Virus record (IMG/VR): IMGVR_UViG_3300037882_001668
Span: 1-34,849 of that record
Length of the DNA stretch: 34,849 nt
Reading direction: 5' to 3' (one strand)
DNA from: a virus
Below, piece after piece: positions 8,075 through 33,484 of the stretch. Both the position numbers and the translations under genes were made by a program. The notes under the pieces were generated by a model. The model worked only from the letters and a program-made list of their open reading frames with translations, did no database searches and was not told the origin of the DNA. Positions within the stretch are counted from its first letter, which is position 1; the number at the start of each line of letters is the position of its first letter.

Positions 8075-8353
8075 ATGGATAGGCAGTGCAGCTCATGCGG
8101 TGGGTTTTGCAAAAAAAGCCGATGCGAAATAATAACGCTAAAGCCAATAACAGGCTCTAACATTAAGCGAATAAGAGAGGCTCGCAAAATGAGCGCGATA
8201 GAACTCGCTCGCGCTGCAAGTGTTCCAAAAAACACGCTTTCAGAGCTAGAAAATAGTACTCAAAACCCGTCTGTGTGGACTATGTACAAAATAGCAAAGG
8301 CTTTGAATTGCAGCATTGAGGAATTGCTAAGATACCAGTCATTACCAGATTGA
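8075..8353 (+). CDS. Xre-family HTH regulator with N-terminal Cys knuckle
   Basis: GGAG seven bases before ATG 8075 supports the long start. Residues 5-17 hold CSSCGGFCKKSRC, a likely zinc knuckle. Residues 29-88 are a standard HTH_3 domain: IKRIREARKMSAIELARAAS, then VPKNTLSELENSTQNPS, then KIAKALNCSIEELL. It probably dimerises and binds a palindromic operator. The 36-base hairpin just upstream is the obvious candidate for autoregulation. Such small repressors occur in both temperate and virulent phages, and no integrase is present. Confidence 0.85.
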   Translation: MDRQCSSCGGFCKKSRCEIITLKPITGSNIKRIREARKMSAIELARAASVPKNTLSELENSTQNPSVWTMYKIAKALNCSIEELLRYQSLPD

Positions 8354-9007: not shown

Positions 9008-9499
9008 ATGATGAAAAAAATAATCCTGATTTCTATTCCTTTTTTGCTTGCGTTAGATTCTGGTGAAACGTCTTACCACAACGACGAAATTATAGCTTTT
9101 GAACAAGCCGTAAAACGCCTGCAAGAAGCAGGCTGTTTAGAGTGGGAGAGAAAAAGAATTAGTTTAGTGACTCAGACTCGCGAGACTGAAAATAAAACAA
9201 TAATTTCAGGGCAGGTTTTTTCGGTTGAGTGTATTAAGTGGCCTACCACAATCGCTCCATTAGTGAGTGTTAAGGTAAGCTGGACACCACCTGAATCTAG
9301 AGAAAATGGCGAGGCATTAACTGCAGAAGAGATCTCACACTACGAGATTCACATCAATGAGGAGGTCTACATTTCTCGAGGTTACGAGTGGATTAAGGAA
9401 TTTCAATACGGCAAGTATTCGCTGAGGATGTTAGCAGTAGATACTGAAGGGCTTAAAAGTGACTTGACTCAGCCCGTCTCATTTACTGTTAGTGGTTAA
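9008..9499 (+). CDS. Exported small protein with a fibronectin type III-like domain
   Basis: Residues 1-16 look like a signal sequence: MMKK followed by a hydrophobic run (IILISIPFLLAL). A helical middle section follows (IAFEQAVKRLQEAG). The C-terminal 85 residues have the FN3 pattern VSWTPP...ENG...ISHYEIHINEE, then YEWIKEF and a final VSFTV strand. It is the last gene of the rightward arm, facing the tailspike gene. No strong ribosome-binding site is visible. It may be a periplasmic or surface accessory protein. A role in adsorption or exclusion is only inference. Confidence 0.7.
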   Translation: MMKKIILISIPFLLALDSGETSYHNDEIIAFEQAVKRLQEAGCLEWERKRISLVTQTRETENKTIISGQVFSVECIKWPTTIAPLVSVKVSWTPPESRENGEALTAEEISHYEIHINEEVYISRGYEWIKEFQYGKYSLRMLAVDTEGLKSDLTQPVSFTVSG

Positions 9500-9557: not shown

Positions 9558-11711
9558 TTAAACTCCTGTCAACCCCAGCCAAGACCCATTGTACCGATAA
9601 TATAACTTGCCATCTTTAACAGTAATCGCGCCATTTTGGACGCCAGATGTTGCCGGTGCTCCTGCAACTAAAGAGTGTCCGATGTACGTCAACCCCGCCG
9701 CAACCCCGAAAACGATAGCGCCCGTATCATCATACAGCCGAAGTCCGTTATTGGTCCCATCGCTCCTACTGTAGACAAGTTTATAATTTTTAACAGTGCC
9801 ATCTGATAAAACTGTTGACAGAAATAAACTAGAACCCTCGCCATCGTCCATCAGTCCCGATTGTAGCGTTAAAATGTTAACAGTACACCCAGAACCAGAC
9901 CCGCCAGTGGTAGCTACAGCAGACGCCACTGAGTAAGCATTGCCAAAATTGGTCATATTAGCAGTCAGGACACCTCCGCTACCGTTAACTGTTAGTACTC
10001 GTATCACTGCATTGCCTTGGCCGCTTGTAATAGTTAAATCATCACCCACAGCATACCCAGTCCCAGCCGCCGCTATTGAAAACGTCCGTATGGTGTTGTC
10101 AATTCTGTAATCTGTTCTGACGTATAAATTGTTGCCAACCTCTACCCCTGCGTCCCCGAATTTAGTAATAGAATTAGTCGTCCCAGCAGCGTTTATAGTG
10201 TCGTTTGGAGTGGTCAGCCGAAAAGTATTATGCTTAGTAGTCCCTTCGCTATAAATGTAACGGATCAACACATCGCCAGTTATTAAACTCTGTTGAATAT
10301 TATTGAGCCTAATACGTTTATTAACAGGTGATTGATTTCTCCCTATATGGAATTCGTTGAAGTATTTATAAGATCCGTCATTGCTGGATGCATCAATTAA
10401 ATAAGCTTTATCGTTCCATGTCGCATCACTAAAGACGCCGCAGCCCTCGAATGCCGTATTGTTGATAATCCTGATACCTTGCACGAGCGCCGGGTAATAG
10501 CTGACATTATCATCCATTAGCGCAACACTATTATTATCATGGCCTAACCGTATTGGTGTATTCTCTGTATTAGCGAAAGAACACGAATCAACTACCGTAC
10601 CACGACCTGAATAGATCCAGAGCAGCACAGATGTCGAGCCATTTGCCTGAGATCCACCATAGAATTTACAGTTGCTTATTGTACTTTCATTAAACCCACC
10701 AGCCGCCACAAAAGTTTCTGACGATTTATAGCCCTGTGCGCCTGAGAATACGCAATTACTGATATTTACACCTTCACAAGAGTAATACCCATAATCTTGG
10801 ACACCGACAACTTTGTGGTATTCAAATTCAAGCATCCGATTACTAAATTTTAAGAATGTCACATTAGAAATATTCACACTATCAGACACGTCTGAGATGT
10901 AAAGACCCTTACAGCCTACGCCAGTATCATTACCTTGGATTGTAAAGTCTCTAAAATTTACTTTCCCCGAAATACTACTACCCGAATAGTACGTGCTGTG
11001 GATCATAAATTTTGCAGTATTCGTCAATAGCGCCCCACCCGCAATAATGTGAGTAGCACTTTGACCAGCACCGTAAAAGTCTCCCTGAATGCCGTTAATG
11101 TTGATAGTATCTGTGATCAAATACGTGCCAGCGGGTATATAAACACTACCATTCCCGCCCTCGCCAACTAAATCTATAGCAGCCTGGAACGCTACGGTAT
11201 CATCTTCCACCCCGTCACCAACAGCACCAAAATCTTTTACACTTACAAACTCTCTTAATTTATCTTGCACAGTGGACGGAGTAGACCCTACCCATCCTGG
11301 GTAATAACCAACCAAACTTGAGCCTTCATTGCTATCTGATCCGTTCGCCAAAGCGTCAATGAACGCATCCAGATTGACTTGGCTTGCCAGTGCAGCCGTA
11401 GCTATATTATCAATGCTCCAAACTGCATTGGTATTATTGTCTGCATCAGCAGAATTTGGGTATAGAACTATTTTGTAATCTTGTTCAACGTGAGGAATAA
11501 ATATCGAATCCTCGCTAGCCTCGCTTCTGACATACCCTTGAGAATTTAATCTCGCCTTTGCCAGCTGAGTACTTCCCGCCGAAGTGGTAGCCATGTAAAT
11601 TGGCGTAGTAGTACCAGCAGCGTAGAATTTAATCCAATAATCTGAGGCAGACACACCTCCTGCCGTTCTAAAATATTGTATTGCTGTTCCGCTTACGGGA
11701 GACCATGTCAT
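9558..11711 (-). CDS. Tailspike protein with pectate-lyase-type beta-helix
   Basis: The 717-residue product ends the leftward arm, as gene 9 does in P22. Residues 1-130 form an N-terminal virion-binding region ([17 protein letters not shown]...). Residue 155 onward starts [20 protein letters not shown], the standard opening of pectin-lyase-fold phage spikes, followed by a long right-handed beta-helix. A Gly-rich segment with two [10 protein letters not shown]-like motifs and a C-terminal trimerisation-type region ([11 protein letters not shown]) follow. It should bind and probably cleave a host surface polysaccharide. The catalytic residues and sugar cannot be read from sequence alone. Confidence 0.9.
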
Positions 11712-23855: not shown

Positions 23856-25904
23856 TTACTCCCAGCGCGCATTTGCGCTAAGCACTTCACCGGTTAACTC
23901 TTGTTCATTGGCTAACTCCAATTCAGTCACCCGAATAGCAGTATCAGTAGCGATCTCAGTAGCCTTAATCTTCATCTCTGCCTGCCACTTGTCGTGGTCA
24001 TCCGACTGCTTTTGAGACTTCAATTCTAACTCAGCTTGAGCAATCGCTAGTCTACCCTCACGCTCAACCATTGCAGCTTCAGCGAGTGGGTTTTGAAGCC
24101 CCTGAACTTGAGCCTGTAGTGATTCTACCGCGTTCATTAGTATTTCATTCTGAGCAGCTATCGTATCGTCTGGATTACCCGGATCATTAAAGAACTCATG
24201 AGTGTCAATCAATCCCATCCCCTGCACCATCCGAGCGACGGTGTTGTAGACTTTCTTCTCATCAGTCAATACAGATTGATTAAGTTTGAGCTGATTATGT
24301 ATTGTTAAAAGACCGGCCATATTCTGTACGATAGTCGTGTCGTCACCGGCAGCCAGGCCTACGTTAGAAGCCAATCGATGCTCATGCCTCCACTTTCTAG
24401 GATCTACTGTTACAGGTTTACCAAGCACCATGATCTCGTCTTTATCACTTTGATAGTGTGATACCATCCAAGCATAACCGTCATACAACTCTTTAAAGCC
24501 AGTCTCAGCCATGCATCTTGCTACTAATTCTACTTTAGCAAATGAAGCATCCTGAACCCCTTGGAATCTTGTAGCAGTCTCTCGATAAAGAGTATCGGCT
24601 TCGAGACCTTGGGATGCCATCAGCGACCCAGTAGACTGCGATCGTGCATTGTCCCAGTACTGTAGGACTTGCAGAGCCTTATCCCCGATATAAGGAGTTT
24701 CCAGCATAGCCACCGCCATTCGCGGATCAGCAGAATTTGTCCTAACAATACCATTAGGTCTGACCGTCAATAAGTCGTCAATATTAGTGTCATCATCATT
24801 AACAACCACTCGAGCATTATTAACTCGGTAAATATTGTCATTTATTTGACGCGAGATGGCTGTCTTAATGACTTGAGTTTGCTCAGCTACCTCAGCCCTA
24901 GACCTGCCAATAGCACTGTGCGGCATGAGAATCGCTGAGAGTATAGCGTAAGGAACAATCTCGAAAGGCTCATTAGTGAGGATCTTATTGCCTGCTTTGA
25001 ATATATGCCTACGCTCGGCTATGCCATCACCGTCATAGTCTAGCAATGGATAAGTGTCCGAGTACGCTACGAGCTGGCTAGTCCAATGCGTAAAACTAGA
25101 CTCATCCTTCTCTCCTCCCTGCTGTAAGAATCTAATCTGTTTCATGCTGGAGTTTTCGTCAAGATCACCAGACGATACAGAAGGTAAGCCTCTAACATCA
25201 TCCTCATCATATCCCATAGCGATCAGCTCGCCGCGAGAGATACGCCCGAACTCGCCGACAAATTCAGCTTCATCTTTACTAGCCGCATTACGAGAAATCA
25301 AAAAAGACTCAACAGGTACGGGAATAGTCTCAAATGATTTACATGTCATCGTTAACTTAATCTCTATCTCGTCGTCATCATCGTCATACCCGACAATTTC
25401 AACGCTATCAACATCACGATCAGACTCTAGATCTTCAACAAGAATGGCTAATTCTTCAGTACTCAGACCTTTATACTTTAAGACCTTGATCTTCTCCTCT
25501 TCGTTATATCTGAACTTAACAACTCCCATTTTTTGTATAAGAGCGTCTTTAATCCAATCGTGAAGCTTCTTGTAAGCGCCTGGCTGATTCTTAATCAGGT
25601 AGTTGACATAAGCGGTCTTCTCTTTAGCCTCAGCGATTGCAGCAGGGTTAGTACCCTGAGCTTTGAACTGTAGAATGTCCTGATTACCGAGGAAGATCCT
25701 CGCAAGAGAAGGCATATCAGCCTCAATGACATCCTGAACATCCATAGAAATGACCGACGATTGACCCTCGATCTCATCGCCCTGAGCCAGGCCCAAGTAT
25801 CTAGAGAGCAACCGCTCATTAACACCCATGAACTCGCCATTGTGTATAGTCGCGTCTCGTTCAGCAGCATTGATTGCCGCTAGGACTTCACTGTCTGTCA
25901 TCAT
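23856..25904 (-). CDS. Portal protein, P22 gp1-like
   Basis: The 682-residue product is close to P22 portal in size (725) and directly follows the large terminase gene. It begins MMTDSEVLAAINAAERDATI, has the segment RYLGLAQGDEIEGQSSVIS early, and a core with ETIPVPVESFLISRNAASKD. The C-terminus is long and helical (residues 600-680) and fits a barrel-like crown. It forms the dodecameric DNA channel. The four-base overlap with the terminase gene supports co-translation. Confidence 0.85.
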   Translation of the reverse strand: MMTDSEVLAAINAAERDATIHNGEFMGVNERLLSRYLGLAQGDEIEGQSSVISMDVQDVIEADMPSLARIFLGNQDILQFKAQGTNPAAIAEAKEKTAYVNYLIKNQPGAYKKLHDWIKDALIQKMGVVKFRYNEEEKIKVLKYKGLSTEELAILVEDLESDRDVDSVEIVGYDDDDDEIEIKLTMTCKSFETIPVPVESFLISRNAASKDEAEFVGEFGRISRGELIAMGYDEDDVRGLPSVSSGDLDENSSMKQIRFLQQGGEKDESSFTHWTSQLVAYSDTYPLLDYDGDGIAERRHIFKAGNKILTNEPFEIVPYAILSAILMPHSAIGRSRAEVAEQTQVIKTAISRQINDNIYRVNNARVVVNDDDTNIDDLLTVRPNGIVRTNSADPRMAVAMLETPYIGDKALQVLQYWDNARSQSTGSLMASQGLEADTLYRETATRFQGVQDASFAKVELVARCMAETGFKELYDGYAWMVSHYQSDKDEIMVLGKPVTVDPRKWRHEHRLASNVGLAAGDDTTIVQNMAGLLTIHNQLKLNQSVLTDEKKVYNTVARMVQGMGLIDTHEFFNDPGNPDDTIAAQNEILMNAVESLQAQVQGLQNPLAEAAMVEREGRLAIAQAELELKSQKQSDDHDKWQAEMKIKATEIATDTAIRVTELELANEQELTGEVLSANARWE

Positions 25905-27298
25905 GCTACCGATACCCTCTGATATTCCAGTTTGCCCCAGTGCTTACGAATTGGCTTGTTTGCAAAACACATTACTAGAGCGTCAGCCATGTTAGGACTT
26001 GCGCCTGTCATCTCAGACTTGCTCTCTAATTGTATCAAACTATTGACGCCTCGCTTACGCTTTACACGACATAATTCTGACTTTAGCTGAGAAAGGTCTT
26101 TAATCGAAGATGATATTGATATTAACTCATCTGGATCTATGTAGTGTTGCTTATCTACCGCAAGATAGGTTTTCTCAAATCTATCTCTTAAGCTCCACCA
26201 AAACTGCGCTCTTAAATTCCTGAAAGAGTTCTTGTTTAACTTATCATCTTCATACTTTCGATCTGGATCTCGGACGCCAGCCCCACCATCAAAACCCTCA
26301 CAGGGTATATCTTGGCCAGTCTTATCACGCTTCAGTGCCAGCTTAACCCCAGCACCGATACCTACTGAGTCATAGACAAATACATCAACGTTATTAGACT
26401 CAGCACACTTGATAGCCTTTTTGATCGCGTCATCTAAGTCACCCTCCTTCCAGTGATCCAAATACTCAACTACTGAACCTCTGCGAATAGCAATAGCCTT
26501 TTCATCGTCACCCTCGTCAGCTGGATCGAACCCCAAAACCTTAACCCCAAGGCCCTCAAAGTTTAATTTCTTATGCGAATCTATAGCAGCTTCAACCCAC
26601 TCGGGTCGAATAATCGAATCGGCGTAGTCAGAGTTACACTCACCCTCATAAACCCAAAGGTATTTGCGATAGTTATTAACTTTCATCTTGAGCATTTCGT
26701 CTTCTAGCGCGCTACCTGCAAACCAAGGATTATCCCAGTAGTTAACTTTCGTAACGATGATAGAATCGTCTTCATACTGGCCGAGCTGGATTAATTTATT
26801 TAAGTACGGGGCTACAAAACGTTGATAAGTGTTGTCCATTTCGTCGTGAGGATTGAATGATACCCATATTTCAGAGCCTTTCTTCCTGATCGTGGGAGTC
26901 AATACGTCCCATGACATTTCACTGATAGCTTCAGCCTCTTCGCACCAGCAAATGTCTATTCCTTCGATAGATTTAATTTTGGTGATATTAGCTTTTAGAC
27001 CTTCAAAGAAAAACTCCGTGCCGTTCACGCCCTTGATTGCCTTTTCTTGGATAATGTAGAAAGCGTTAAGACCTAATCTCTCGATAGTGTCACACAATAA
27101 CTTATGTACAGATTCTTTGATCGATCCCTGTAATTCTCGAGTGCAGAGAATACGGACCTTTGTAGACGCACCCTTGAGTAAGAGTGCTTCAGCTATACCC
27201 CATGATTTTGCTCCACCTCTACCGCCGTACAGAACCTTCGTCCTTTTGGGCTTATAAAGGCACTGGAGCTTAATCGGTACTTGTATTTTTAGGCTCAA
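25901..27298 (-). CDS. Terminase large subunit
   Basis: The 465-residue product has Walker A GGRGGAKS at 25-32, Walker B ICWCEEAEA near 115-123 with the catalytic Glu pair, and a coupling motif VSFNPHDE. The RNase H-like nuclease domain starts at VLGFDPADEGDDEKA near 247, with later VYDSVGIGAG. It is the ATP-driven packaging motor and headful nuclease. Layout and length fit the PBSX/P22-type terminases. The start lies inside the end of the small-subunit gene. Confidence 0.93.
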   Translation of the reverse strand: MSLKIQVPIKLQCLYKPKRTKVLYGGRGGAKSWGIAEALLLKGASTKVRILCTRELQGSIKESVHKLLCDTIERLGLNAFYIIQEKAIKGVNGTEFFFEGLKANITKIKSIEGIDICWCEEAEAISEMSWDVLTPTIRKKGSEIWVSFNPHDEMDNTYQRFVAPYLNKLIQLGQYEDDSIIVTKVNYWDNPWFAGSALEDEMLKMKVNNYRKYLWVYEGECNSDYADSIIRPEWVEAAIDSHKKLNFEGLGVKVLGFDPADEGDDEKAIAIRRGSVVEYLDHWKEGDLDDAIKKAIKCAESNNVDVFVYDSVGIGAGVKLALKRDKTGQDIPCEGFDGGAGVRDPDRKYEDDKLNKNSFRNLRAQFWWSLRDRFEKTYLAVDKQHYIDPDELISISSSIKDLSQLKSELCRVKRKRGVNSLIQLESKSEMTGASPNMADALVMCFANKPIRKHWGKLEYQRVSVA

Positions 27299-27587
27299 CG
27301 AACTCCACCACCAAGTCTAGATTGACACTCCCACCACTCGGGCCAGAGACTTCAATGTCCGTCTGTTTAAGATCAGGCAGATACTTTTTAACCAACGCTA
27401 AACGAGCATCATTAGCAGCTTTCAATCTTTGTATATCGTTAGACTCTAAAGGTATAGTCAAGTCGGCTAGTTTTTCAGCCGTTTCAATAACATGCTGCAT
27501 AAGACCCTTGGCACGTAATTGCTCACGTAATGCCTCAGCTCTTATCTTTTTATTCTCTTGTGCGCGAGTTACGCCAGAGCCAGCCAT
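27270..27587 (-). CDS. Terminase small subunit (probable)
   Basis: The 105-residue product is basic at the N-terminus (RAQENKKIRAEALREQLRAK), helical in the middle (MQHVIETAEKLADLTI, then RLKAANDARLALVKKYLP) and acidic at the end. It sits right before the large terminase and overlaps it by 29 bases, where the small subunit is expected. No classic HTH is obvious. It should recognise the packaging start site and form a ring. Confidence 0.7.
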   Translation of the reverse strand: MAGSGVTRAQENKKIRAEALREQLRAKGLMQHVIETAEKLADLTIPLESNDIQRLKAANDARLALVKKYLPDLKQTDIEVSGPSGGSVNLDLVVEFVEPKNTSTD

Positions 27588-27616: not shown

Positions 27617-28039
27617 TTAAGTAAGCGTTCCAATGCCTGCTGCATTGATCTGTACTGTCAGAGTATTACCATTAGTTACAGACACATCCACAGTGTCGAG
27701 AACGCAATGGCATACGATTTCATCGGGTGTAGTAGTCGTATCTATGATAGCCGCATAACGACAAGTCAATGTACCACCAGAGGCTGTAAAGACCCCATCA
27801 TCGCTATCAAAAGTTACCGTACCACCTGACCGAACCCAAGTGACTGCTAGTGTGTCTGGAGAATATCCATTACCCGAAACCTCGTTAGTTGCCGTTGTGG
27901 CATCACCCAAACTAGCAGACGTTATATTTGACGCAGAAGTATAGAGCTTCATAACGAAAGTATCGTTATCCATGTCTATTGTATTATCACCCATGTACTC
28001 TTTAAAACGATCATGAAAAACCCATGCACTAGCCGCCAT
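27617..28039 (-). CDS. Small virion protein, possible decoration or tail protein
   Basis: The 140-residue product begins MAASAWVFHDRFKEYMGDNT. It continues with beta-rich Thr/Ser/Gly sequence (TFVMKLYTSASNITSAS, then LTCRYAAIID) and ends QINAAGIGTLT. Phage proteins with this AWVFxDxFKEYxG opening are usually annotated as hypothetical structural proteins. It lies just upstream of the terminase genes and shares one base with the repeat protein gene before it. Confidence 0.65.
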   Translation of the reverse strand: MAASAWVFHDRFKEYMGDNTIDMDNDTFVMKLYTSASNITSASLGDATTATNEVSGNGYSPDTLAVTWVRSGGTVTFDSDDGVFTASGGTLTCRYAAIIDTTTTPDEIVCHCVLDTVDVSVTNGNTLTVQINAAGIGTLT

Positions 28040-28803
28040 TATCCCGCCCTCTTTAAATCCCAGATTGTTGTTACATTGTTTTGATCAGCCCACAACCCTT
28101 GTGTGTTAGGGTATACCGTCCACACACTGCCAGTGTTTATTATAGCCGGTATTGATCCATAAAGGCCAATTATGCCAGCCAACGATGGAACCGTCACCGA
28201 TCCACGATCTAACTCTGGACTGAAACCGCCCACTAAAATTGTGCCAATTGTGGGTGATACAACCTTATTCCCACTAGCAATAAGGTATGGAACGCTACCG
28301 GTGACATCCATACCTATGCTCGGTACAGGAACGACCAGTGACTCACCAGCAGCAGGGACTAACCCTACCAGATTTAGTGCTGCCCTTGGGATGTTTATAG
28401 TTACGTCATCTGCGTCTATAGCAACTGGAGCAAGACCAGACAATGACATTACACTGACCGGAATGCTCAAAATCTGAGGCATTAACACTTCAGGAGCTAA
28501 ACCAGCTAATGATATTCCTGTAGGCGATGGGTATGCTGCAACGCTTAAAAGCAGATCGGGGATTGAGCCGGTAATCGTGATATTGGCAATAGGGACATCA
28601 ATAACCGGCGCCAACAACACATCAGGAGCAAGACCTGTGACATCAATAACCCCAGCCTGTATATATAATATTGACGTTGTTATAACAGCATAGCCGGTGA
28701 TAACTAACCCACCCGTAGGGATGGATCCAGACTGGATATCACCAAAACTTCCGCCTTGAATATCACCAAAGTCTTGATCTTGTATGTCGCCAAATTCAGC
28801 CAT
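28039..28803 (-). CDS. Repeat protein with FGDIQ and GLAP/GSIP repeats
   Basis: The 254-residue product opens with tandem pieces (FGDIQDQD, FGDIQGGS, FGDIQSGS). About seven repeats of roughly 24-27 residues follow, each with a hydrophobic strand, then GLAPDVLL, GSIPDLLL, GLAPEVLM, GLAPVAID, GLVPAAGE, GSVPYLIA or GSIPAIIN. Such regular spacing suggests a beta-solenoid or fibrous shaft. The C-terminus (LWADQNNVTTIWDLKRAG) is different and may anchor it. It lies between the exported esterase and terminase genes. A minor virion fibre is plausible; I recognise no family. Confidence 0.65.
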   Translation of the reverse strand: MAEFGDIQDQDFGDIQGGSFGDIQSGSIPTGGLVITGYAVITTSILYIQAGVIDVTGLAPDVLLAPVIDVPIANITITGSIPDLLLSVAAYPSPTGISLAGLAPEVLMPQILSIPVSVMSLSGLAPVAIDADDVTINIPRAALNLVGLVPAAGESLVVPVPSIGMDVTGSVPYLIASGNKVVSPTIGTILVGGFSPELDRGSVTVPSLAGIIGLYGSIPAIINTGSVWTVYPNTQGLWADQNNVTTIWDLKRAG

Positions 28804-28808
28804 ATATT

Positions 28809-31800
28809 TTAGTCGTTAAACTCCATCTCTTTAATCATGTCTACAATTAAACTGTTCGGCGTTTGAGGCGAGCTAGAAAAGTTAGGCGCTAAATAACTAG
28901 CACCTGACTGTGCAACGATGATATTTAGATAATAACCCTCACCTGACCCAAGACCATTACCAGGATTGCCCGCACCCCCGTCTGTTGAGCTCCAGCCGTT
29001 TAAAACCATTTGAGTATTGGCATTTGTCCCGGCGCCAGGAGCGTCAACTGTTGATGTAGTCTCCCACGCCCAATACCCGCCCTGAGCCGTTGAACAATAA
29101 ACAGTTGGCGCTGCTAGTGTACCGTCAACAGCACTCGAGCAAGCTCCTGTGTTGTCACTAGCGCTTGTTACGTCGTACACATATAGATGTCCCTTCGGCC
29201 CCGAAGTTAAGCCGTTGTGTGCCGCACTGACGACCCATTCGCCATTTGGAAGCCTCACTGTTGAGCATTTAGACTCTGTGCTGGCATCATCCCCTATACA
29301 GATAAATCCGCTCGTGTTCAGCCACAACACGTCAGCGGATCCGGACTGCGACAAAAAATTAGCCTGCGAAATAGTGTTACTAGAAATTACAACGCGAACT
29401 AATTTTAAGTATCCGCCTTCGTTTTGGTTCCACATCGTCCCTGTGTTTGACCACGTTGTACAAGGGTTTCCGGCAGTACACAAGTGTATTGCCAGGTGAT
29501 CTGCGCCGTCATCTAAAGACTTAGCGCCACCGGTGGCCGAGTCATACGCGAGCGGGCCGTTAACACCTGCATAGCTCCCTGCTACAATTTTCCCGATAAC
29601 CGTTGGCTTGCCTGTTAAATTAGGGACGCGCCACTCGGTTAGATCTTGGTTGTTAGTCGTGCAAGGATTTCCGCCCGTACATTGCATTTCTTTTGCTGCA
29701 ACCGGCGTTCCGGATTCCGTATTATACTGTGCGTGCACAATCAAACTAGGTGCAGCCCACGTCGAAGAATAATTCGAACCAGCCGCAGCAGGAGTGACAA
29801 AAGATGGTGATGTCATAGCTGTCCACGCTCCCCACCCAAACCCCGACCGCCACGCTCTTACGCGCACATAATACGCCGTGCCATTCGTGAGCCCTGTTGC
29901 TACTATGCCACTCGCTGTGGGGCACGTACTGCCAAGCGTACACGCAGACTGATCAAAAGTTGGCGAGCTAAAATCAGAATTATTGTCAACCTGAGCCGCG
30001 TATTCTGTTGGAGTACCAACGGTTGAAGACCACGTTATATCAGTAGTAGTATCATCGCCGTCAGTAGCAGTTAAACCAACAACAGCGGGATCTGGAGTAG
30101 CAGACGGCGTTGCAGATGTCGGACTAGATACAGTAGACCAACGCCCCCACGCATTAGCATCTACGCCATCATATCCTCGCACGCGACACCAATACGCCGT
30201 GCCGTTTGTTAAACCCGTTGCGTTTTCCGGCGACGCGGTGTCGCACGTACTCCCAACCGTACAGCCTGAGCTATCATACACAATCGCAGTAAATCCTGAG
30301 TTGCTAGAGCACTGCACGCTATACGCTGTCGAATTTGTTTGACTAGTCCAGCCCACTGAGATGGCCCCGCTGGCAGGAGATAGTGTCACGCCCGAGGGAG
30401 CCGAATAAAAAGGCGTCCCGCTAGCAGTCGTGATCGGCCCCCATCCAGCGCCGCCTGCGTTACCGTCGTCAATGGTTGACGTATTGACTGCTTGCAATCG
30501 TCCGTACCACAACGTTTCGTTAGTTAACCCTGAAACTAATTGCGATGTGCCTGTGATGCAATTAGTGCCGTGTGTGCAACGTGTTCCACCATAAACCGGA
30601 GAACTAAAATCAGAATTATTGTCAACTGTTAGATAGTATTCTGTGTCCGCAGGTAACCCAACCGTATCAGCCGGCCATGACCACGTAATTTTATTGCTCG
30701 CAACAGTCGGCGTTAATGTTAGACCAGCGGGAACCGCTTCGGTGACCGGATTTCTACCAGTTACCTCTAGCCATTTTTGAAACCCTGCGTGCCCTCGTAT
30801 CCGCTGACCCGCCGCCGTAAAATGGATCAAGTTTGTTCCGCTCGGTCCAGTGCCGTTTGGCGCACTAGTAGCAGCAACGTAATGAGCGTTAGTCATGATG
30901 TCCTCTAAAACTGGTACGCCGCCGCCGTAAGTTCCAGCTATGACTGAGTAAATTTCCCCACAATGCGTCCACGTTGTATTGATATTTGGAGTGTCATTCT
31001 TGCAAGCTTCTGTTGCGTTAAAATATAAAAACGGAACACCCGCAAGCTCGGGAATTACGCTAGACAAATAATCGAAAAGTGCTTTTGTATTTTCCGGCCA
31101 AGCCTCAACCGCCGGTATCCCCTGTGCCGATCTCGCTTCCCACTCTCCCTGACTCCACAGAGTAGCTATAAATCTCAAATTGGGAACCGAGCTCAACATT
31201 TCAGTTAAATGAGCAACGGTGTCGGCTCGTCCACCGCTCGCATATGTTGAGTAATTAGCGCCCCAATATCCGTACCCAGTCTCCCCATGGCCCGTCGTAT
31301 ACTTGCCAACAGCGACAATACAAACAGGCCTAACAGCACCACCAGTTCTAAGTTGATGTTCAGTGTTAGTGGTGTCCTCTTGATATGCCAGCCAGTCTTT
31401 CGCGAAAGTAAAAGCTAGCCCGACCTGGTGCGGGATTAAGCCTTCAGCGGTATCGACGCCACCATCAGAAATCAAAAATTGTGAACTAGCTGACGATTGC
31501 CCCGCCCTAGTCCACTGAATTATCCTATCATCTGGAGCATCTAAAACACCATCGACCTCACCGCCAGCGCCCACAGAATTACTCTGCCCACCTTCTAAGA
31601 TCACATCACAGCCGCCCACAATTTCGTTAAAATAAATCGGGTGTAATGCAGATGCTAAAATTATCGCGCCTCCGAAATTTGGTAACTCAAACGCACCCTC
31701 ACTGCTATCACTAGACTCAATAATATCAGTAACGATAAAATCGCAGTGGTCGGCGGGAGCTGTACATCCTAAATCAGATGGGTCGTCGAAATAACCCTCA

Positions 31801-32018
31801 ACCTGCGCCGTTATTAATCTATCCCCGTTTTTATCTATTTTTATAGTATATAACCGACCCTCAGGAGGCATCACATACGACGCAGCGGGTAGGTAAACAT
31901 CTTCAATGATGTTATCTACTGTGCTAGCATCAGACGACAAAAAACGTATATTATTTTCTAATCCTGACGCAAGTGAAACGCTAGAGAAAAACAAAAAACA
32001 TAGAGCAAAATAATTCAT
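28809..32018 (-). CDS. Large exported SGNH/SASA-type carbohydrate esterase with FN3 domains
   Basis: The 1069-residue product starts with a signal peptide (MNYFALCFLFFSSVSLASG, cleavage likely after residue 18 or 19). Residues 135-410 look like the SASA/sialate O-acetylesterase family of SGNH hydrolases: GGQSNS with nucleophile S146, LWSQGEWEA near 287-295, and catalytic-type His399 in NLIHFTAAG. Three FN3-like domains follow (about 425-535, 540-640, 645-750), each with Cys pairs. A C-terminal beta-sandwich of about 300 residues completes it. It would deacetylate a surface glycan. A signal peptide and many Cys residues are unusual for a virion protein. Confidence 0.75.
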   Translation of the reverse strand: MNYFALCFLFFSSVSLASGLENNIRFLSSDASTVDNIIEDVYLPAASYVMPPEGRLYTIKIDKNGDRLITAQVEGYFDDPSDLGCTAPADHCDFIVTDIIESSDSSEGAFELPNFGGAIILASALHPIYFNEIVGGCDVILEGGQSNSVGAGGEVDGVLDAPDDRIIQWTRAGQSSASSQFLISDGGVDTAEGLIPHQVGLAFTFAKDWLAYQEDTTNTEHQLRTGGAVRPVCIVAVGKYTTGHGETGYGYWGANYSTYASGGRADTVAHLTEMLSSVPNLRFIATLWSQGEWEARSAQGIPAVEAWPENTKALFDYLSSVIPELAGVPFLYFNATEACKNDTPNINTTWTHCGEIYSVIAGTYGGGVPVLEDIMTNAHYVAATSAPNGTGPSGTNLIHFTAAGQRIRGHAGFQKWLEVTGRNPVTEAVPAGLTLTPTVASNKITWSWPADTVGLPADTEYYLTVDNNSDFSSPVYGGTRCTHGTNCITGTSQLVSGLTNETLWYGRLQAVNTSTIDDGNAGGAGWGPITTASGTPFYSAPSGVTLSPASGAISVGWTSQTNSTAYSVQCSSNSGFTAIVYDSSGCTVGSTCDTASPENATGLTNGTAYWCRVRGYDGVDANAWGRWSTVSSPTSATPSATPDPAVVGLTATDGDDTTTDITWSSTVGTPTEYAAQVDNNSDFSSPTFDQSACTLGSTCPTASGIVATGLTNGTAYYVRVRAWRSGFGWGAWTAMTSPSFVTPAAAGSNYSSTWAAPSLIVHAQYNTESGTPVAAKEMQCTGGNPCTTNNQDLTEWRVPNLTGKPTVIGKIVAGSYAGVNGPLAYDSATGGAKSLDDGADHLAIHLCTAGNPCTTWSNTGTMWNQNEGGYLKLVRVVISSNTISQANFLSQSGSADVLWLNTSGFICIGDDASTESKCSTVRLPNGEWVVSAAHNGLTSGPKGHLYVYDVTSASDNTGACSSAVDGTLAAPTVYCSTAQGGYWAWETTSTVDAPGAGTNANTQMVLNGWSSTDGGAGNPGNGLGSGEGYYLNIIVAQSGASYLAPNFSSSPQTPNSLIVDMIKEMEFND

Positions 32019-32260
32019 ATTTTTGACCTGATAAATTTTATCAACGCACTAGACAACACAAAAATAACACCCAAAGAACCTATAATTGCTAGACTATCCC
32101 CGACTGTTAAATAGTAATTACTTCCCGCTATTTTGTCGATTATGTGTGCATTTAAAATCGATTGCTGTACCACAGCGGGAGCATTTGTAGTCCCGAGTGA
32201 CACCGCACTCAACGTCCCGACAGCTGCTTCCGTTTTGTAATTTGCTATCGTGTCTCGCAC
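32015..32260 (-). CDS. Small membrane protein, holin-like
   Basis: The start is GTG 32260 with AGGGGA four bases upstream. The 81-residue product has a soluble N-terminal half, then one clear transmembrane helix near residues 55-76 (DSLAIIGSLGVIFVLSSAL), ending in a basic tail (KFIRSKI). Size, helix and position at the end of the lysis-type cluster suggest a holin or holin accessory. It overlaps the next gene as ATGA. A longer frame (32118-32342) overlaps it out of phase. Confidence 0.65.
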   Translation of the reverse strand: MRDTIANYKTEAAVGTLSAVSLGTTNAPAVVQQSILNAHIIDKIAGSNYYLTVGDSLAIIGSLGVIFVLSSALIKFIRSKI

Positions 32261-32342
32261 AAATTCCCCTGATTATTTTAAAAACTAAAAACGCGGCATT
32301 GATGATCAACACGCAGCGCAATACGTCTAGTAACTCGCCCAT
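32118..32342 (-). CDS. Membrane-anchored Cys-rich small protein overlapping the holin-like gene
   Basis: The 74-residue frame starts 14 bases past the preceding stop. It has an N-terminal membrane helix (VLRCVLIINAAFLVF), a basic stretch and a C-terminal zinc-ribbon-like YKCSRCGTAIDFKC. Its last two thirds overlap the holin-like gene in another frame. The first 27 residues use DNA not otherwise coding, which supports it. The ribosome-binding site is weak (GGTAAAAT). It is an uncertain but interesting nested gene. Confidence 0.4.
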   Translation of the reverse strand: MGELLDVLRCVLIINAAFLVFKIIRGICARHDSKLQNGSSCRDVECGVTRDYKCSRCGTAIDFKCTHNRQNSGK

Positions 32343-32356
32343 ATTTTACCACAAAT

Positions 32357-32803
32357 TTAATAACCATTTTCCGCTATTGTTAGCGTGATACCCTCGCCTC
32401 TATTGATTGCAGCTTGGATCATGCTAGTTAGCGCCGCCTCCTGCGTCCCATGAATTTTGTCATTTGATATTCTATTTTTTGCAACCAAAATGCAACCAGC
32501 TGTATCGTCAGACGTGTTGCCGCCGTGAATCCTCAAACCTGCCCACGCGTTGCCGTTAATTATAGCCGTTTTTTTATCTGCTTGATTATACAATATCGGC
32601 ATCAAGCGACCGAACCTATTACTTATCGACAAATCAACTGACAGCGTACACGCAGGTATGCACGTATGCCCTGCAATTTTCACCGCAGGATGCCTCAAAG
32701 CATCTTCCAGCGTATAGCAGAAAAATCTACCGTCTATATACATCTCCCCAGATGTACTGTGCGCAGTTACTTTCCCCAAATCCCTGTAGACTATAATTAT
32801 CAT
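32357..32803 (-). CDS. DUF5675-type protein, possible cell-wall enzyme
   Basis: The 148-residue product contains LRIHGGNTSDDTAGCILVAK near residues 90-109, a signature of DUF5675. It resembles the catalytic loop H-G-x(n)-G-C of L,D-transpeptidase-like folds. The N-terminus has GRFFCYTLEDALR and the middle NAWAGLRIH. These proteins recur in phage lysis cassettes. No muramidase or amidase is seen here, so this is the best candidate for a peptidoglycan-acting protein. Its biochemical activity is not established to my knowledge. Confidence 0.75.
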   Translation of the reverse strand: MIIIVYRDLGKVTAHSTSGEMYIDGRFFCYTLEDALRHPAVKIAGHTCIPACTLSVDLSISNRFGRLMPILYNQADKKTAIINGNAWAGLRIHGGNTSDDTAGCILVAKNRISNDKIHGTQEAALTSMIQAAINRGEGITLTIAENGY

Positions 32804-32985
32804 TTACCAAACTCGTCGTGGAATTTATCAACTGTTGCTGTCATATCATCAATTGCCCACCTGAGCTGATCACGAGTCACCGCGTTGTCTTTTTTTATTG
32901 CTTCGCCAGTTTCTTTGATATCTATGCCAAGCCTAATAAGCATCCCAATCAGCGCAATAGCATCACCCGTTTTTTGAGAGCTCAT
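32800..32985 (-). CDS. Small lysis-cluster protein, unknown
   Basis: The 61-residue product begins MSSQKTGDAIALIGMLIRLG, with a short apolar segment followed by a charged helix (DIKETGEAIKKDNAVTRDQ, then VDKFHDEFG). The apolar part is short for a transmembrane helix. It overlaps both neighbours by four bases inside the lysis cluster. It may be a holin accessory or a small structural protein. Confidence 0.6.
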   Translation of the reverse strand: MSSQKTGDAIALIGMLIRLGIDIKETGEAIKKDNAVTRDQLRWAIDDMTATVDKFHDEFGK

Positions 32986-33293
32986 TTTGTTGTTCTCAAT
33001 TTATATTCTAAAAAATCTATGATGTCCATTGCGTCTCGCAGATCGTAATCAGAATCTCCTGCCTCAGCTGCATTCGTCAGTAGTGTTTTTGCTAGCATCA
33101 ATCTGTTACTGTAATCTGCGCATTCGTCACGCGTAAATGTACCGCGCCTACAGGCCTGCGTTAGCTCTCGCGTGATTGACGTAACTGATCTAACAGCAAC
33201 AAACGCGGCTTCATCTTTCGTATCGACGCCGGAAAAAAACGAGCAAGCTGCTATCCCAGCCGACAAAATTAAAATAGAAATTGCGTGCCTCAT
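32982..33293 (-). CDS. Small lipoprotein in the lysis cluster, possible outer spanin
   Basis: Residues 1-17 form a lipoprotein signal (MRHAISILILSAGIAAC, lipobox IAAC with Cys17). The rest is helical and charged, with two further Cys (RELTQACRRGTFTRDEC). Export and lipid attachment are expected. Lipoproteins beside holin-like genes are often outer spanins, which join the inner and outer membranes at lysis. It is longer than Rz1, and no nested frame typical of embedded spanins was found. Other periplasmic roles remain possible. Confidence 0.65.
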   Translation of the reverse strand: MRHAISILILSAGIAACSFFSGVDTKDEAAFVAVRSVTSITRELTQACRRGTFTRDECADYSNRLMLAKTLLTNAAEAGDSDYDLRDAMDIIDFLEYKLRTTK

Positions 33294-33484
33294 GTCGGTT
33301 TTCTCTGACTTTGCAGATCCTTACCCGCAGCTGTGAATGCTGTTAAAAATGCTACGGCATATTGCACCTCACTAATATCAGCAAAAACCGTCACGCCCTC
33401 GCCGGAAAATAACACAATTAAAATACCGCAAAGCGTTATTAAAAACGTCACGAACAAACTAAAAACCTCATCCAATTTTATCAC
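33290..33484 (-). CDS. Two-helix holin-like membrane protein
   Basis: The start is GTG 33484 (TAGTG overlap), with GAGGTGG just upstream. The 64-residue product has a first membrane helix near residues 9-27 (LFVTFLITLCGILIVLF). A second weaker one lies near 41-53 (VQYAVAFLTAFTA), before a basic tail KDLQSQRKP. Small size, two helices and a charged C-terminus are typical of holins. Its place ahead of the lipoprotein and the DUF5675 gene fits. Confidence 0.65.
   Translation of the reverse strand: MIKLDEVFSLFVTFLITLCGILIVLFSGEGVTVFADISEVQYAVAFLTAFTAAGKDLQSQRKPT

What the first reader, a model, noticed from the sequence alone, without database searches (positions are those of the whole stretch)
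28809..32018. Phage-encoded giant esterase with a signal peptide, FN3 domains and many cysteines
An SGNH/SASA-type hydrolase with a secretion signal is unexpected in a phage structural region, because virion proteins assemble in the cytoplasm. It may be released to strip acetyl groups from capsule or LPS around infected cells, alter receptors against superinfection, or be a recently captured bacterial surface protein.
Basis: partly seen in the sequence, partly recalled or inferred. Interest (0 to 1): 0.6.

Follow-up and report, generated by a model that had tools for sequence, protein, structure and literature searches.

The report
Phage-encoded exported sugar esterase, probably released
A P22-like virus of bacteria carries, between its cell-bursting and DNA-packaging genes, a large gene for a probably exported, disulfide-rich enzyme that likely removes acetyl groups from surface sugars; phage acetyl-esterases are well known, but one built for export with this domain layout is unusual.

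Summary
It has a Sec-type N-terminus, a divergent SASA/CE6-type SGNH domain (aa ~126-432), three FN3 domains (425-745) and an orphan 324-aa C-terminus. SASA assignment is weak on score (Pfam E 0.0018, below cut-off) but has the family's diagnostic features: GQS block I, QGE block III, and a block V His without the Asp, as in E. coli NanS. Export is supported by 22 cysteines after the signal peptide and a C-x5-C hairpin repeated five times (20,000 shuffles, p~5e-5). FN3 relatives in 44 marine viral contigs have no cysteine in the aligned stretches. The gene is not in the virion-structural block: it overlaps (ATGA) a small membrane-protein gene at the end of the lysis cassette and precedes terS/terL. 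Best reading: a late-expressed exported polysaccharide O-acetylesterase, freed at lysis, analogous to lysis-adjacent prophage NanS-p. A virion-attached role is the main rival, because one phage with a related neighbouring module carries a SASA domain fused to the same kind of repeat, without a signal peptide. Substrate unknown; no structure model of useful confidence.

The parts
28809..32018 (-). 1069-aa ORF: signal peptide, N-domain, SASA-type esterase, three FN3, C-terminal domain
31968..32018 (-). predicted Sec signal peptide, aa 1-17 (MNYFALCFLFFSSVSLA)
   Evidence: crude rule-based prediction, no SignalP
31644..31967 (-). N-terminal region aa 18-125, no match
30723..31643 (-). divergent SASA/CE6 SGNH esterase domain aa 126-432
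31578..31592 (-). Block I GGQSN, aa 143-147: Gln145 oxyanion, Ser146 nucleophile
   Evidence: role after PMC9487903
31143..31157 (-). Block III WSQGE, aa 288-292
30822..30833 (-). Block V NLIH, aa 396-399: His399 base, no Asp
30408..30746 (-). FN3 repeat 1 (aa 425-537) with CTHGTNC hairpin
30096..30407 (-). FN3 repeat 2 (aa 538-641) with CTVGSTC hairpin
29784..30095 (-). FN3 repeat 3 (aa 642-745) with CTLGSTC hairpin
28812..29783 (-). C-terminal 324 aa, two more C-x5-C pairs, no match; presumed carbohydrate-binding (inference only)
32015..32260 (-). 81-aa protein with C-terminal hydrophobic segment; stop overlaps esterase start (ATGA)
32357..32803 (-). DUF5675 protein in the lysis cassette
32982..33293 (-). 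small lipoprotein-like, o-spanin-like (by eye)
   Evidence: sequence
33290..33484 (-). small membrane protein, weak holin match
   Evidence: E 0.15
28039..28803 (-). 254-aa repeat protein; the same kind of repeat is fused to a SASA domain in L004
27617..28039 (-). phrog_644 protein, marker of a variable module
25901..27587 (-). small terminase (by position) and large terminase

Best explanation
A late-expressed, Sec-exported, disulfide-stabilised carbohydrate O-acetylesterase of the SASA/CE6 type. Steps: (1) transcribed with the lysis/packaging operon and translationally coupled to the lysis-adjacent 81-aa gene (layout shown, expression inferred); (2) exported through Sec, signal peptide removed, disulfides formed in the periplasm (inferred from signal peptide and cysteine pattern); (3) a NanS-like Ser146-His399 dyad with a Gln145/QGE oxyanion network removes O-acetyl groups from a host surface polysaccharide (inferred from motifs); (4) FN3 repeats act as spacers and the C-terminus probably binds the polymer (inferred, weak); (5) it is freed at lysis and acts on the surface glycan of debris and neighbours, helping progeny get away and reach new cells (most speculative step).
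For: Signal peptide and cysteine pattern. FN3 relatives in 44 marine viral contigs: 112 Cys on the query side against 0 on the relatives' side over 50 aligned segments; the relatives checked have no signal peptide and 0-4 Cys per ORF, so the Cys hairpins are specific to this protein. SASA motifs and profile scores above shuffles. Low-confidence model whose top PDB matches are the SASA structures NanS 3pt5, 2apj and 1zmb. ATGA overlap with the lysis-side gene and position before terS. A separate ordinary tailspike-type gene exists at 9558-11711. Lysis-adjacent prophage NanS-p and PBR31 gp40 as precedents (PMC10462455, PMC10975493).
Against: No Lys/Arg in the signal n-region. SASA match below Pfam cut-off. 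Structure model poor (pLDDT 43), and NanS relatives were in its alignment, so its NanS match is partly circular. Downstream repeat and phrog_644 genes have relatives near tail genes, and L004 has SASA fused to that kind of repeat without a signal peptide. No homologue of the whole protein, so no conservation test of the active site within its own family.
Confidence: 0.55

Rival explanations
1. Virion-attached receptor-processing esterase: part of a tail or capsid appendage module with the 254-aa repeat protein and phrog_644, deacetylating host glycan at adsorption like G7C gp63.1; the hydrophobic N-terminus is an assembly anchor or is not cleaved.
For: SGNH receptor-binding esterases are common in phages (PMC13123978). 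L004 has phrog_644, a SASA-repeat fusion and a further repeat gene side by side. phrog_644 lies by minor tail proteins in mycobacteriophages.
Against: Signal peptide; patterned cysteines absent from Cys-free FN3 relatives; gene is outside the head-tail block; SASA passes the cut-off in only 1 of 100 records related by TerL or phrog_644, so the module association rests on one case.
Confidence: 0.25
2. Periplasmic lysis helper: removes O-acetyl groups from peptidoglycan or another envelope polymer so that the lysis enzymes can act.
For: Coupled to the lysis cassette; PBR31 authors propose a lysis role for their exported SGNH esterase (PMC10975493).
Against: Size, FN3 repeats and a large C-terminus suit extended extracellular polymers (inference); SASA enzymes characterised so far act on sialic acid or xylan acetates (PMC9487903); known peptidoglycan O-acetylesterases are of other SGNH types (own knowledge).
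Confidence: 0.1
3. Lysogenic-conversion or superinfection-exclusion factor: expressed in the prophage state, it deacetylates the lysogen's own receptor polysaccharide.
For: A Cro/CI-like regulator gene at 8075-8353 hints at a temperate lifestyle; the PBR31 deacetylase is annotated as possible O-antigen modification.
Against: Sits in the late operon without an evident promoter of its own (promoter-like hits at chance level); no integrase match in the ORFs scanned.
Confidence: 0.07
4. Exported lectin-like protein whose esterase domain is inactive.
For: Divergent domain, Block V Asp missing.
Against: EcNanS lacks the same Asp (PMC9487903) and NanS-type proteins are active esterases; Ser, Gln, QGE and His are all kept.
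Confidence: 0.03

Closest known systems
E. coli NanS (SASA, PDB 3PT5) and prophage NanS-p
   Same: GQSN / WxQGE / xxxH motif order, Asp missing in Block V; NanS-p is in the phage late region next to lysis genes and adds a C-terminal lectin-like domain to the catalytic core
   Different: 22-26% identity only; NanS-p has DUF1737 and no FN3; the NanS-p paper read mentions no signal peptide; substrate of ours unknown
Xanthomonas phage PBR31 gp40
   Same: SGNH esterase with export signal beside the lysis cassette of a P22-like podovirus
   Different: 215 aa, GDSL-type rather than SASA, LGAC lipoprotein-like signal, opposite strand to the lysis genes
Phage SGNH receptor-binding esterases (G7C gp63.1, Klebsiella prophage RBPs)
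   Same: Phage SGNH acetylesterase thought to act on surface polysaccharide
   Different: Those are virion fibres; no signal peptide is mentioned in the paper read; ours is Cys-rich and lies at the lysis-terminase junction
L004 SASA-repeat protein (IMGVR_UViG_3300032373_000017)
   Same: SASA domain with NxxH, next to phrog_644 (65% identical to ours) and the same type of repeat
   Different: No signal peptide, repeat fused in the same ORF, LamG-like C-terminus by eye, no FN3; about 22-26% identity over the domain

Membership tests
SASA / CE6 (PF03629) | Profile score above curated cut-off | tested here: not met
   18.4 bits against 24.8, E 0.0018
SASA / CE6 (PF03629) | Block I GQS with Gln next to the nucleophile | tested here: met
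   GGQSN 143-147, aligned with NanS and L004
SASA / CE6 (PF03629) | Block III (H)QGE motif | tested here: met
   WSQGE 288-292
SASA / CE6 (PF03629) | Block V catalytic His; Asp may be absent as in NanS | tested here: met
   NLIH 396-399 aligned to RSSH of NanS
SASA / CE6 (PF03629) | SGNH fold | tested here: inconclusive
   pLDDT 43, pTM 0.49; best PDB hits are SASA structures but TM only 0.27-0.36
SASA / CE6 (PF03629) | Acetyl-esterase activity | not testable with these tools
   needs biochemistry
Fibronectin type III | Pfam fn3 above cut-off | tested here: met
   32.2 bits against 25
Sec-exported protein | n/h/c signal peptide | tested here: inconclusive
   h- and c-region present, no basic n-region residue; rule-based test only
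Prophage NanS-p | DUF1737 + SASA + lectin-like C-terminal domain | tested here: not met
   No DUF1737 match and no match for the N- and C-terminal regions
Phage virion receptor-binding protein | Present in virions | not testable with these tools
   needs proteomics

The most novel reading that the evidence does not exclude
Phages use the lysis-packaging junction to carry Sec-exported, disulfide-rich carbohydrate-active enzymes that are neither virion parts nor lysins, released as soluble 'public' enzymes at lysis. This esterase, the 12-Cys pectate-lyase-like protein in L016 and perhaps the 13-Cys signal-peptide protein in L010 would be examples.
Probability: 0.25. Interest if true: 0.65.

Novelty: new variant of a known kind. 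Interest (0 to 1): 0.42.

Why it matters
Phage acetyl-esterases are normally thought of as virion receptor-binding proteins. An exported, disulfide-built esterase tied to the lysis cassette would mean a phage conditions the outside world before or at lysis (debris, biofilm, neighbours), which can be tested directly by comparing virion and supernatant proteomes.

Tried and rejected
Whole-ORF homologue searches in phages, plasmids, viral contigs, GTDB contigs and 369 gammaproteobacteria: nothing. C-terminal domain: no family, PDB, phage or viral match. Single-sequence AlphaFold2 of aa 20-432: pLDDT 35, useless; with seven SASA relatives 43. A general SASA/phrog_644 partnership was rejected: 1 of 100 records. 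A lipoprotein reading was rejected: the only Cys in the signal (C7) is inside the h-region, not at a lipobox. Recent bacterial capture: no support found. Scrambled copies of the domain were made as search decoys but never used. Literature searches for exported phage FN3 or carbohydrate-active proteins gave nothing useful.

Full report
Observation. The finding is an open reading frame of 1069 aa on the minus strand, 28809-32018. The window is a 34,849-base virus record of a P22-like podovirus: portal, major head protein, Hc3-type head closure, gp7/gp14-like and tailspike matches in PHROGs, terminase 47% identical to APSE phages, capsid about 50% identical to aquatic phages. Late genes run on the minus strand in the order NinG, holin-like, lipoprotein, 61-aa ORF, DUF5675, an 81-aa membrane-type protein, the esterase, a 254-aa repeat protein, phrog_644, terS, terL, portal. 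The esterase start overlaps the stop of the 81-aa gene (ATGA). The gene is therefore at the lysis-packaging junction, outside the head-tail block.

Domain anatomy. aa 1-17 look like a Sec signal (hydrophobic core and AxA-like site, but no Lys/Arg in front). aa 126-432 match SASA weakly (E 0.0018, 18.4 bits, cut-off 24.8). A profile of six natural NanS relatives gives 13.0 bits, above every one of 1000 shuffles (best 7.5) and every other window ORF. Alignment with NanS and with a second phage SASA domain puts GGQSN, WSQGE and NLIH in register with NanS. The SASA family is marked by the Gln beside the nucleophile and the (H)QGE motif, and EcNanS itself lacks the Block V Asp (PMC9487903), so the missing Asp is not evidence of inactivity. 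aa 425-745 are three FN3 repeats. The last 324 aa match nothing.

Export evidence. 23 cysteines, one inside the signal peptide and 22 after it. There are five C-x5-C pairs (CTHGTNC, CTVGSTC, CTLGSTC, CTGGNPC, CTAGNPC), where shuffles give 0.48 on average (p 5e-5). Three of the pairs are at the same place in the three FN3 repeats, so part of this count reflects repeat duplication. FN3 relatives from 44 viral contigs show 0 cysteines over 50 aligned segments where the query has 112 (segments overlap, so 112 counts the same residues many times), and the relatives checked lack signal peptides. In 1036 ORFs of at least 250 aa from the viral loci fetched, 18 have a signal by a similar crude rule; their mean Cys content is 1.42% against 0.76% for the rest. 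Together this is a consistent picture of a protein folded in an oxidising compartment. It is indirect, and the signal predictor is simple.

Relatives and neighbourhood. No homologue of the whole protein was found. phrog_644 sits in variable neighbourhoods, by minor tail proteins in mycobacteriophages and by terminase or tail genes in others. The closest independent case is L004: phrog_644 (65% identical), then a 650-aa protein with a SASA domain (Pfam 33.7 bits) followed in the same chain by the type of repeat seen in our 254-aa neighbour, then another repeat gene. This links esterase and repeat protein but is a single case: the 99 other records searched have no SASA match, and our own divergent domain would also have been missed by that search. 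L004's protein has no signal peptide, which keeps the virion-attached reading alive.

Structure. Without relatives the model failed (pLDDT 35). With seven SASA relatives it reached 43.4, pTM 0.49; Foldseek's best PDB matches were NanS 3pt5, 2apj and 1zmb, the SASA structures named in PMC9487903, at low TM. NanS relatives were in the alignment, so only 2apj and 1zmb are semi-independent.

Known systems. SGNH esterases as phage receptor-binding proteins are widespread and proven (PMC13123978). NanS-p esterases lie in the Q-S interval of lambdoid prophages with a lectin-like C-terminal domain (PMC10462455). PBR31 gp40 is an SGNH esterase with a signal peptide by the lysis genes (PMC10975493; its DNA read shows an LGAC lipoprotein-like signal and the opposite strand). 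The present protein is a new variant: SASA type, signal peptide, disulfide-bearing FN3 repeats and an orphan C-terminus.

Verdict. Exported, soluble O-acetylesterase at 0.55; virion-attached at 0.25; lysis helper, conversion factor and inactive lectin share the rest. Substrate, host and timing are unknown.

Noticed in passing
window 9008-9499 +: A second signal-peptide protein (MMKKIILISIPFLLALDSG..., 163 aa), beside the tailspike gene on the other strand, whose C-terminal part reads like an FN3 domain (SWTPPES...YEIHIN); no database match.
   Followed up: partly
L005 8147-11227: Next to phrog_644 and a repeat protein, two proteins with clear signal peptides: 740 aa and a 281-aa LamG domain protein (Pfam Laminin_G_3 3e-16).
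   Followed up: partly
L016 8915-10522: 535-aa pectate-lyase-like protein (phrog_27797, 3e-13) with an N-terminal signal or membrane segment and 12 Cys next to phrog_644: another possibly exported polysaccharide enzyme.
   Followed up: partly
L010 3872-4996: 374-aa signal-peptide protein with 13 Cys between a lysozyme-like ORF and phrog_644; no family match.
   Followed up: partly
L109 9814-10616: Two small signal-peptide proteins in tandem that look FN3-like by eye, downstream of phrog_644; no Pfam or PHROG match.
   Followed up: partly
L027 3525-11974: Terminase neighbourhood packed with genes that look like sugar-nucleotide epimerase, NeuB-like, cytidylyltransferase-like and radical-SAM-like by eye: a possible surface-sugar synthesis cluster, including ORFs between terL and portal.
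   Followed up: no
window 32118-32342 -: A 74-aa overlapping frame (MGELLDVLRCVLIINAAF..., many Cys) covers the same DNA as the 81-aa gene; which one is expressed is unclear.
   Followed up: no
window 32357-32803 -: DUF5675 protein stands where an endolysin would be expected; its IHGGN...GCI motif resembles L,D-transpeptidase-like enzymes by eye.
   Followed up: no
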